Part shown: piece by piece, positions 18,598 through 20,849 of the stretch
Numbering within the stretch: position 1 is the first letter of the stretch
Layout of the letters: each line of letters opens with the position of its first letter
NCBI RefSeq assembly: GCF_000702425.1
Contig: NZ_JNIE01000002.1
Coordinates: forward strand, 124,001-188,000
DNA: 64,000 nt
Direction: 5' to 3'
Source: Thermocrinis jamiesonii
GTDB taxonomy: Bacteria > Aquificota > Aquificia > Aquificales > Aquificaceae
Translations under genes and position numbers: made by a program
Notes under the pieces: generated by a model
What the model was told of the DNA's origin: nothing
What the model saw: the letters and a program-made list of their open reading frames with translations, nothing else
The model's database searches: none

Positions 18598-18720
18598 ATG
18601 AATTTGATTAAACTTAAGCGTTGGTTTTATAAGAAGATATACAAGGAAGCTTTTGAGAAGTTCAACTGGGATTTGGATTTAAAAAAAAAAGGTAAAGGAT
18701 CAATGTTTTGTGGTTTTTGA
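18598..18720 (+). other. Probable 5' part of the exonuclease gene in a different frame, ending in an A10 run
   Basis: From ATG at 18598 a frame reads MNLIKLKRWFYKKIYKEAFE and on to FNWDLDLKKK, then meets exactly ten A residues (18681-18690) and stops at 18718-18720. The exonuclease domain starts in the +1 frame directly after the A run (KVKDQCFVVFDTE). In the exonuclease frame a TAA at 18680 blocks any other upstream start. Losing one A or gaining two would fuse the two parts into a protein of about 210 residues. Explanations are transcriptional slippage, a real inactivating frameshift, or a homopolymer sequencing error. Confidence 0.6.
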
Positions 18721-19231
18721 TACAGAAATGTCTCACTCTGATTTCAAAACTGCAAAGATTTTAAGCTTGGGTGCCTTTCGTTTGGAGGGACTAAAGCTAA
18801 AACTTTCTGATCACATAAGCTTTAAAGTTAAAAACTTCATGCAAGACTTAGAAAGCATAAAGGTGCATGGCATATTGCCTGACGAACTAAAAGAAGGCAT
18901 AGAACCGGAAAAAGCCTGTAAAGAGTTTATTAAATTCTCCTGGGACTGCGTGCTCGTGGGCTATTTTACGGAAATAGACGTGTGGGTGATGAGGAGTTTA
19001 ATTAGGGAATCGTGCGGAGGAGTTTTCCGTCCCTACTACATTGATTTGGTAGATCTTTTGGAGATTAGGGATAAAATACCTACCTTAGAGGAGCTTTCCA
19101 AAAGCTTGAACTTGCCCCTTTCAAACTTTCACGATGCTTTGGAAGATGCCTACATAACATCTTTAGCTTTTTTAAAGCTTGTAAAAAAGTATGAGGACCT
19201 TGAGGTAGGAGAGTTGCCCATAAAAGTGTAG
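18710..19231 (+). CDS. DEDDh 3'-5' exonuclease (DnaQ-like)
   Basis: RNase T/DnaQ-fold exonuclease. ExoI is FDTEM (D4, E6 when counted from GTG 18710), ExoII is YFTEIDVWVM, and ExoIII is FHDALEDAYI with the catalytic His and Asp, so all four acidic residues and the His are present. Starting at GTG 18710 would truncate the first beta strand, and there is no Shine-Dalgarno there; the true protein probably begins at 18598 and crosses the A10 run by a frameshift. It may be a polymerase III epsilon-like proofreader or a small repair nuclease. The following gene begins 36 bases later. Confidence 0.8.
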   Translation: MVFDTEMSHSDFKTAKILSLGAFRLEGLKLKLSDHISFKVKNFMQDLESIKVHGILPDELKEGIEPEKACKEFIKFSWDCVLVGYFTEIDVWVMRSLIRESCGGVFRPYYIDLVDLLEIRDKIPTLEELSKSLNLPLSNFHDALEDAYITSLAFLKLVKKYEDLEVGELPIKV

Positions 19232-19267: not shown

Positions 19268-20185
19268 ATGGAGAAAAAGGTAAAAATAAGTTTGATCTTG
19301 GAAAGTTTTCACAATTTAGAAAAGGCTTATGCGGACTTGAAAAAGCTTGTATCGATGGGCAAAGAAGAATTTGTAAAGAACAAGCTTGTTTGGGATAAGG
19401 CAAGGGTGGATTTTAACTTGGCTTTTGAAAGTTCTATGAGACCTTGCAGACACTTATCTGTGGTTTATGGTCTAAGGACTACGTCAAAAGACTGTTTGGT
19501 AAAGTTGGGCGAGCACATAGGTTTTAAAGATTTAAAAAACCTTCAGGATCTTACCAACTTCTACATTGAATACAGAGACCCAAAAAAAACAGTAGATCCA
19601 GAAGAGCTATATCACTTTTTAGAACAAAATATCCATGTATTTAAGGAATATGCAAAGGCGGTGGTGGAACACATAAAAAAAACTACCGGGAATGTTCTTT
19701 TGATAGACTTTGACCTTCTAAGACAAAAAGCAAAACACGTGAAAGATTCCGTAGACAAAATAAACTTCGTTCTTTCGGTAGATTTAGAAGAGTTCAAAAG
19801 CAAGCCTATGTATTACGATAGAGTAAAGTATTTTTATCAAGTAGCTTACGATTCTTTGTTTGACATATGCAAACATTTAGCACCAAAGTTTGGAATAAAA
19901 AAGTTTGGAGACGATTGCCTCTTAAAAATGGTAGAGCACGGAATAGTCTCGGAGGAGCACAAAGATAGAATTATCAAGATGATAAAGCTTAAAAATAAAC
20001 TAATAAGCACGTGGGATATACCACAAGAGGAGCTTTATGAAAATTTAAGAGAAACAAAGGATTGGTTTGAACCGTTGATGAAAGAGATTGCTGTTTCTCT
20101 CAAAAACCTATTAGAAAAAGTTTCTTCAAGTCAAAAATCACCGCTAAGAAACAACCAAGAGAAAGAAAAGGACAAAAAGGAATAG
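19268..20185 (+). CDS. Tandem HepT-like (DUF86-related) protein, degenerate active-site motifs
   Basis: A 305-residue soluble, all-helical protein that looks like two fused copies of a HepT/DUF86-type domain (about 1-135 and 148-280). The copies align visibly: CRHLSVVYGLRTTSKDCLVK (from C60) against CKHLAPKFGIKKFGDDCLLK (from C201), each followed by EH. HepT toxins carry RX4-6HXY near the end of the domain; here the matching places read LTNFYIEYRD and LKNKLISTWD, so Arg and His are lost in both. No MntA-type nucleotidyltransferase partner is adjacent. The C-terminus is a charged tail ([11 protein letters not shown]). The assignment is by pattern and is moderate. The 3' 86 bases overlap pilD. 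Confidence 0.55.
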   Translation: MEKKVKISLILESFHNLEKAYADLKKLVSMGKEEFVKNKLVWDKARVDFNLAFESSMRPCRHLSVVYGLRTTSKDCLVKLGEHIGFKDLKNLQDLTNFYIEYRDPKKTVDPEELYHFLEQNIHVFKEYAKAVVEHIKKTTGNVLLIDFDLLRQKAKHVKDSVDKINFVLSVDLEEFKSKPMYYDRVKYFYQVAYDSLFDICKHLAPKFGIKKFGDDCLLKMVEHGIVSEEHKDRIIKMIKLKNKLISTWDIPQEELYENLRETKDWFEPLMKEIAVSLKNLLEKVSSSQKSPLRNNQEKEKDKKE

Positions 20186-20849
20186 CAAAGTTTATGTTTT
20201 TGTTTTTTAATATCGTAGGAATGGCATAGGTTAGCCCAATAATACTGCCAAGAAAAACCGCCCCTATCACTCCCCAAATGCCTGCTACAGAACCTATAAA
20301 AGCCATAAGCTCCACATCTCCAAAACCCAAACCTTCCATCTTTCTTATCTTAGTGTAGTATAGGTAAATAAGTAAAAAAGGTAAAGCGCCAGACATTGCT
20401 CCCACAAAACTTTCAAATAGACTAAAGTCCGACCTAAAAACGGAAGTTGTAAAACCAAAGAGAATACCGCCAAGTATGATTGGCTCAGGCAAGCTAAAAG
20501 TATCCCAGTCTATCATGCTAAGGACCAAGAGGGTGGAGAAAAAGATGTAAAAAACCAAGGCAGACAAGCTAAAGCCCCACTTGTAGAAGCATATCACTGC
20601 CAAAAGCCCACTTGCCATCTCAACAAGCGGATATCTCAGAGGTATTTTACTTTTACAGTTTCTACATCTGCCTTTCAGCATAAGGTAGGAAACTATTGGA
20701 ATGTTGTCATACCACTTTATGGGAACTTTGCAGTTTGGACAGTGGGAAGGCGGATAGGCTATGGACATACCCTTTGGGATTCGGTATATCAAAACGTTGT
20801 AAAAACTTCCAAACACCGCACCAAGCACAAAAAGAAGAAGATAAACCAC
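20100..20849 (-). CDS. pilD: Type IV prepilin leader peptidase / N-methyltransferase
   Basis: A 249-residue polytopic inner-membrane aspartyl protease that trims and N-methylates type IV pilins and type II pseudopilins. The N-terminal [18 protein letters not shown], the two CxxC pairs of the cytoplasmic loop (CPNC and CRNC), and the catalytic Asp residues in [13 protein letters not shown] and [12 protein letters not shown] are all present. The start is GTG at 20849. Its last 28 codons overlap the HepT-like gene on the other strand. Its promoter region is shared with gyrA. Confidence 0.93.

What the first reader, a model, noticed from the sequence alone, without database searches (positions are those of the whole stretch)
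19268..20185. Tandem, catalytically degenerate HepT-like protein
Two halves align by eye (C60RHL...DCLVK...EH and C201KHL...DCLLK...EH, period 141). Both lost the Arg and His of the RX4-6HXY RNase motif, and no MntA antitoxin partner is adjacent. A fused pseudo-dimer without RNase residues suggests a new role, such as nucleic-acid binding or a dead-toxin immunity factor, possibly with the neighbouring exonuclease.
Basis: partly seen in the sequence, partly recalled or inferred. Interest (0 to 1): 0.55.

Follow-up and report, generated by a model that had tools for sequence, protein, structure and literature searches.

The report
Dead double toxin kept by Aquificales
Two families of heat-loving Aquificales bacteria nearly always carry a gene that fuses two copies of a toxin-type protein; both copies have lost the cutting residues but keep cysteines and histidines that hardly ever vary, which suggests a former toxin reused for a new, still unknown job.

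Summary
In detail: ORF 19268-20185 (305 aa) is two HepT-like (PF01934) domains in tandem, period 141, and the predicted structure matches solved HEPN/DUF86 chains over each half (Z 17.8 and 16.2). The RX4HXY His and Tyr are lost in both halves, here and in all 74 half-domains of 37 tandem proteins, but R, H and Y are intact in 44 of 44 single-domain HepTs compared. No MntA gene is adjacent (0 of 43 loci), and the two halves are the genome's only PF01934 matches. It behaves as a core gene: found in 43 of 43 genomes at least 90% complete of its own family (Aquificaceae) and 24 of 26 of a sister family, but in 0 of 7 of a third; no full-length tandem was seen in 255 sampled genomes outside the phylum. 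The neighbouring exonuclease is irrelevant: 0 of 37 relatives holding it have it adjacent. New clue: a Cys/His set, C60-x-H62...C76 and C201-x-H203...C217; four Cys in 58 of 58 family sequences. Best reading: a domesticated HepT pair acting as a non-catalytic binding protein, ligand unknown, Cys as disulfides or a metal site.

The parts
19268..20185 (+). tandem HepT-like gene, 305 aa, single copy in the genome
19268..19690 (+). N-terminal HepT-like half (residues 1-141), the more diverged one
   Evidence: 18.3 bits alone, below cut-off; Z 16.2 to 1ylm, residues 2-146
19691..20131 (+). C-terminal HepT-like half (residues 142-288)
   Evidence: 53.2 bits; Z 17.8 to 7ae8_D
19445..19495 (+). N-half Cys/His set: C60 and H62 near the end of helix 39-67; C76 at the start of helix 76-84
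19868..19918 (+). C-half Cys/His set: C201 and H203 near the end of helix 180-208; C217 at the start of helix 217-223
19817..19822 (+). D184-R185, an acidic-basic pair typical of the tandem family (D43-K44 in the N half); D with R not seen in 23 single-domain HepTs
19562..19585 (+). N-half region where RX4HXY should be (about residues 99-106); Arg, His and Tyr all absent at the aligned columns
19991..20011 (+). C-half region where RX4HXY should be (residues 242-248); K in place of R, S in place of H, no Tyr
20135..20182 (+). charged low-confidence tail (residues 290-305); a tail this long was seen only in sequences of the own genus
18710..19231 (+). DEDD 3'-5' exonuclease gene upstream (36 bp gap); neighbour only, not part of a conserved unit

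Best explanation
A HepT-type RNase toxin domain was duplicated and fused, lost its catalytic motif and its MntA partner, and was domesticated as an inherited core gene of two families of Aquificales. One polypeptide probably forms by itself the two-domain arrangement that HepT toxins make as homodimers, and binds a ligand (most likely an RNA or nucleotide in the former active-site cleft, otherwise a protein) without cutting it. The Cys in helix 2 and the Cys at the start of helix 3 of each half probably brace the fold, most simply as two disulfides. Shown: two HepT-like halves, predicted fold of each half, motif loss, absence of an adjacent MntA, core-gene distribution, near-invariance of the Cys/His set. 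Inferred: pseudo-dimer geometry, ligand binding, disulfides, the direction of change (from toxin to tandem). Not known: the ligand and the cellular role.
For: Two HepT-like halves. Catalytic His in 0 of 74 half-domains vs 23 of 23 single-domain relatives; R, H, Y in 44 of 44 single-domain HepTs. Present in 43 of 43 family-f1 and 24 of 26 family-f2 genomes at least 90% complete; no full-length tandem match in 255 sampled genomes outside the phylum; no match in the plasmid or phage collections. In a tree of 73 rows all tandem halves lie on one side of a branch against the single-domain HepTs, support 100/97. The former Arg column stays basic in 37 of 37 C halves (K/R), and the helix-2 acidic residue stays D/E in 71 of 74 halves, so part of the old site is kept while the His never is. 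Four Cys in 58 of 58 distinct sequences; 32 of 58 have no other Cys. Inactive HEPN domains have been proposed to act as RNA-binding proteins, e.g. MtlR (PMC3710099, passages). Aquifex aeolicus stands out among five thermophilic bacteria in predicted cytosolic disulfides (PMC3177088, passages).
Against: No binding data of any kind; the net charge of the C half is 0 and of the N half +4, not strongly basic. The gene neighbourhood gives no hint in Aquificaceae. The gene is absent from all 7 genomes of family f3 in the same order, so the function is dispensable or replaced there. Whether there was one duplication or two is unresolved.
Confidence: 0.45

Rival explanations
1. It is a protein-protein adaptor or scaffold, not a nucleic-acid binder. 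The helical pair docks onto partner proteins, for example a protein with a membrane hairpin encoded just upstream in part of family f2.
For: A ~410-aa protein with hydrophobic stretches around residues 273-335 in the five sequences checked (one of the five shows a single stretch) and otherwise coiled-coil-like sequence (my reading, no predictor run) is found in 20 of 136 Aquificota genomes, 3 genera. In 18 of those 20 it lies directly upstream of the tandem gene (places), with gaps of -11 to 0 nt in the 8 loci read. In the other two (G066, G069) no tandem match was found in that assembly.
Against: No match in the other genera of f2 or in any f1 genome, so it cannot explain the core role. Helical bundles match many scaffolds by fold alone.
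Confidence: 0.25
2. The conserved Cys/His set binds a metal or cluster (Zn, Fe-S or haem), making the protein a metal or redox sensor or carrier built on a dead toxin.
For: H62, C76, C201, H203 and C217 are five of only nine invariant columns in 38 sequences of two families. The first Cys and the His lie two residues apart near the end of one helix, and the second Cys at the start of the next.
Against: The His is also present in 20 of 23 canonical long-type HepTs, and 7 of 44 canonical HepTs have both Cys with an intact RNase motif, so the set is not tied to loss of catalysis. The first Cys is shifted by one residue in the N half of f2 (20 of 20). Jointly occurring Cys fit a disulfide equally well.
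Confidence: 0.15
3. It is a decoy or immunity factor that neutralises HepT/MntA or other HEPN systems by pairing with, or imitating, the toxin.
For: It is related to HepT; in one same-genus genome (G052) two canonical HepT domains lie about 1.8 and 3.1 kb downstream, each near an MNT-motif ORF.
Against: Near-universal in the family while canonical HepTs are patchy (15 of 64 genomes with a hit under 1e-20). The own genome has no other PF01934 match. No Tyr to accept AMP from MntA (0 of 74). A fused pair leaves no free dimer surface if it packs as a HepT dimer (inference).
Confidence: 0.07
4. It is still a ribonuclease that uses other residues (for example the helix-2 acidic residue, K242 and H62/H203).
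For: The acidic residue and a basic residue at the old Arg column are kept in the C half; R-x4-6-H strings occur at other places in 5 of 74 half-domains. The 2013 HEPN survey notes proteins with a conserved H elsewhere that could contribute to activity (PMC3710099, passage).
Against: The RX4-6H His is lost in 74 of 74; H62/H203 is also present in 20 of 23 canonical relatives alongside the normal motif, so it is not a replacement.
Confidence: 0.08

Closest known systems
HepT toxin of the HepT/MntA toxin-antitoxin system (PF01934; NF047751; PDB 5yep, 6m6u, 7ae8)
   Same: fold of each half, domain length, the His near the end of helix 2, detectable sequence homology
   Different: two domains fused; RX4HXY lost in both; no adjacent MntA; near-universal in its families rather than patchy
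YutE of Bacillus subtilis (DUF86, PDB 1ylm)
   Same: best structural match of the N half, Z 16.2
   Different: single domain; whether it keeps RX4H was not tested here
HEPN dyads (Csx1, Swt1) and inactive HEPN proteins such as MtlR (PMC3710099, passages seen)
   Same: two HEPN domains in one chain (dyads); proposed non-catalytic binding role (MtlR, Swt1)
   Different: other HEPN families; the dyads named are fused to Rossmann-fold or PIN domains, whereas this is a bare DUF86-DUF86 pair
NTase_sub_bind proteins (PF08780)
   Same: related HEPN-type domain (PF01934 also hits them)
   Different: single domain; the four examples met here (L074, L075, L078, L063) each have an MNT-motif ORF alongside; the tandem has none

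Membership tests
HepT-like domain family (PF01934) | score over Pfam's gathering cut-off | tested here: met
   whole protein 66.8 bits vs 23.5; C half alone 53.2; N half alone 18.3, below cut-off
HepT-like domain family (PF01934) | HepT/HEPN helical fold in both halves | tested here: met
   predicted model: Z 17.8 (145-289 vs 7ae8_D), Z 16.2 (2-146 vs 1ylm)
HepT RNase toxin (NF047751 equivalog) | score over NCBI's cut-off of 60 bits | tested here: not met
   54.2 bits
HepT RNase toxin | RX4-6H RNase motif | tested here: not met
   His absent in both halves; 0 of 74 half-domains of 37 tandem proteins
HepT RNase toxin | Tyr of RX4HXY that MntA adenylylates | tested here: not met
   0 of 74 at that column
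HepT/MntA toxin-antitoxin system | adjacent MNT (MntA) gene | tested here: not met
   no MNT-motif ORF within 300 nt in 43 loci, the window included; all 26 single-domain relatives read have one alongside
HepT/MntA toxin-antitoxin system | toxicity neutralised by adenylylation | not testable with these tools
   needs an expression experiment
HEPN dyad proteins | two HEPN domains in one polypeptide | tested here: met
HEPN dyad proteins | halves packed as a HepT-type dimer | not testable with these tools

The most novel reading that the evidence does not exclude
A toxin-derived pseudo-dimer became a core metal- or redox-responsive protein of a deep-branching bacterial lineage: the former RNase cleft binds RNA or a nucleotide, and the four Cys and two His form redox or metal switches that control it, in some lineages tethered to the membrane by the protein encoded just upstream.
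Probability: 0.12. Interest if true: 0.7.

Novelty: new variant of a known kind. Interest (0 to 1): 0.42.

Why it matters
HepT/MntA genes are patchy in the genomes compared here. One HepT lineage appears to have been fused, disarmed and fixed as a core gene of two families, a clear test case for how toxins are domesticated. The Cys/His set and the few other invariant residues give direct mutational targets. It also warns annotators: an automatic 'HepT RNase toxin' label on this family would be wrong.

Tried and rejected
Exonuclease linkage: rejected. MntA elsewhere in the genome as partner: the only MNT over the cut-off sits with a PF05168 HEPN gene. Mobile-element origin: tblastn of plasmids and phages gave no match at E 1e-3. 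A conserved neighbour in Aquificaceae: none across genera.

Swap of the two halves between families: the best tree groups f1C with f2N (96/87) and f1N with f2C (81/75), but AU tests do not reject the four alternative pairings tried (p 0.48-0.59), and profile scores conflict (f1C-f2C 174 highest, f1N-f2N 46 lowest). Left open; one duplication or two cannot be decided. Two short single-domain rows (L099, L100) and 11 of 37 tandem proteins were left out of that tree to save time.

A metal site as the main reading: downgraded after finding the same Cys pair in 7 of 44 canonical HepTs, always jointly (7 of 7 with the second Cys have the first; Fisher p 2e-5, rows related, so not a true probability). 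In that call many short-type HepTs have no residue at the second Cys column, one of 30 fetched loci gave no hit, and MNT adjacency was tested by a strict motif only (21 of 29; the 8 misses were not examined). A malic enzyme (L060) was wrongly included in alignment A3 and removed in A4. Family f2 copies were not folded, because the structure tool states that it takes only window proteins and those of loci from named tools. Folds missing from the structure list are not claimed absent.

Limits of the census: outside the phylum only 255 genomes were sampled, and the match list is cut (strongest first). A scan of genome contigs by short peptide patterns, which finds close relatives only, gave 8 loci, all Aquificota.

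Literature: 'HEPN domain'+Aquificales and DUF86+Aquifex gave no paper; HepT/MntA/HEPN gave 3; HEPN/MNT/inactive/RX4-6H, at least 3 of 4, gave 23, 20 listed; HepT/tandem/Aquificota, at least 2 of 3, gave 420, the 10 listed unrelated. Absence from this open-access library is not absence from print.

Full report
What is there. ORF 19268-20185 (+) encodes 305 aa. Pfam finds HepT-like PF01934 twice (whole-protein E 1.9e-18; C half alone 3e-14; N half alone 0.0019, below the curated cut-off). NCBIfam's HepT toxin equivalog is hit below its cut-off, 54.2 vs 60 bits. The halves match each other at E 2e-10 (17/57 identical), with the conserved Cys and His exactly 141 residues apart (and the sequence). 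An AF2 model from nine sequences has mean pLDDT 88.7 and pTM 0.71, with the last 16 residues under pLDDT 50. Both halves match solved HEPN/DUF86 chains: Z 17.8 for residues 145-289 against 7ae8_D, Z 16.2 for residues 2-146 against 1ylm; the first row that is not HEPN or DUF86 by its title, apart from AbiA at 9.6, is at Z 9.3. Foldseek itself gave E no better than 0.014. A profile of the family also finds HepT chains by sequence (E 4e-8).

Loss of catalysis. I aligned 74 half-domains (37 tandem proteins: 17 from the own family f1, 20 from family f2) with 23 single-domain relatives and counted columns. The His of RX4-6H is present in 0 of 74 and 23 of 23; the Tyr of HXY in 0 of 74 and 23 of 23. 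The Arg column is R in 23 of 23 single-domain proteins; in the tandem it is K or R in 37 of 37 C halves, Tyr in 17 of 17 f1 N halves, and K, R or I in f2 N halves. Adding further HepTs (29 found in 30 fetched loci, 44 distinct in all) kept R, H, Y at 44 of 44. All 26 single-domain relatives printed carry the motif and have an MNT-like ORF alongside, as I read the printed sequences. Around the tandem, no MNT-motif ORF lies within 300 nt in any of 43 loci; within 7 kb four small ones occur, in 3 loci.

Distribution. The profile was searched in 391 genomes, 136 of them Aquificota. Clear members, partial ones included, occur in 62 of 64 f1 genomes and 35 of 41 f2 genomes; among genomes at least 90% complete, 43 of 43 and 24 of 26 (counted by me from the table). 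The two f2 misses are assemblies of about 300 and 320 contigs. Family f3 of the same order has none in 7 genomes; f4, f5 and the 255 genomes outside the phylum gave only single-domain or partial matches, or none, among the matches listed. No match in plasmid or phage collections. The own genome holds one copy, and its two halves are the only PF01934 matches.

Context. Gene order around the tandem is not conserved between genera of f1. The upstream exonuclease has homologues in 37 other f1 genomes, none adjacent to the tandem (different contig, or at least 17.5 kb away). In f2, 20 genomes of three genera encode a ~410-aa protein with hydrophobic stretches near residues 273-335 and otherwise coiled-coil-like sequence (by eye); Pfam has no family for it over a cut-off in the three tested. 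In 18 of 20 it is immediately upstream of the tandem gene; in the other two the tandem was not found in that assembly.

The Cys/His set. In 38 aligned sequences of both families only nine columns are invariant: H62, C76, F176, R185, Y188, D195, C201, H203, C217. All 58 distinct family sequences have four Cys at these sites (the first shifted by one residue in f2), and 32 have no other Cys. The set is not tied to the loss of catalysis: 7 of 44 canonical HepTs have both Cys (five of them one clade in the tree), and none has the second without the first. Joint occurrence argues for a functional pair, a disulfide or a shared ligand site. Aquifex aeolicus is reported as standing out among the thermophilic bacteria examined in predicted disulfides (PMC3177088, passages), which makes the disulfide the simpler reading.

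Evolution. In a tree of 73 rows all tandem halves lie on one side against the single-domain HepTs (100/97), and each of the four half-groups is one group. Which half of f1 corresponds to which of f2 is not resolved.

Mechanism. The 2013 HEPN survey (PMC3710099; [quoted passage not shown] Aquifex is not mentioned in its main text. The 2020 HepT/MntA study (PMC7641770; passages seen) reports a dimeric HepT, AMP groups placed along the cleft to the RX4H site, and Tyr104 as the modified residue. A fused, disarmed HepT pair keeping a basic and an acidic residue of the old site fits a binding protein. This step is inference; so is the pseudo-dimer geometry.

Verdict. Real and lineage-restricted as far as sampled, a new variant of a known kind; function unresolved.

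Noticed in passing
window 20100-20185: The tandem gene's 3' end overlaps by 86 bp the convergent prepilin peptidase ORF 20100-20849 (-) (PF06750 and PF01478); the overlap includes the charged tail seen only in the own genus.
   Followed up: partly
L063 7892-8577 (-): In one f2 genome a 95-aa MNT-motif ORF and a 135-aa NTase_sub_bind (PF08780) gene run into the tandem gene with a 4-nt overlap, so a complete MNT pair sits just upstream of it.
   Followed up: partly
L039 / G052 C1 693291-694874: A same-genus genome has two canonical HepT domains about 1.8 and 3.1 kb downstream of the tandem gene, each with an MNT-motif ORF nearby; the own genome has none.
   Followed up: partly
L109 1038-1779: The own genome carries one overlapping HEPN (PF05168) + MNT (PF01909) gene pair.
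   Followed up: no
L055 5586-6818, L056 5755-7008 and six more loci: Protein of unknown family with hydrophobic stretches, in 20 of 136 Aquificota genomes, directly upstream of the tandem gene in 18 of them.
   Followed up: partly
L073, L076, L095, L103, L104: A clade of canonical MNT-linked HepTs (four from family f5, one from outside the phylum) has the same CxH...C set with an intact RNase motif.
   Followed up: partly
families f1 vs f2: The best tree pairs the N half of one family with the C half of the other, as if the order were swapped; the tests do not settle it.
   Followed up: partly
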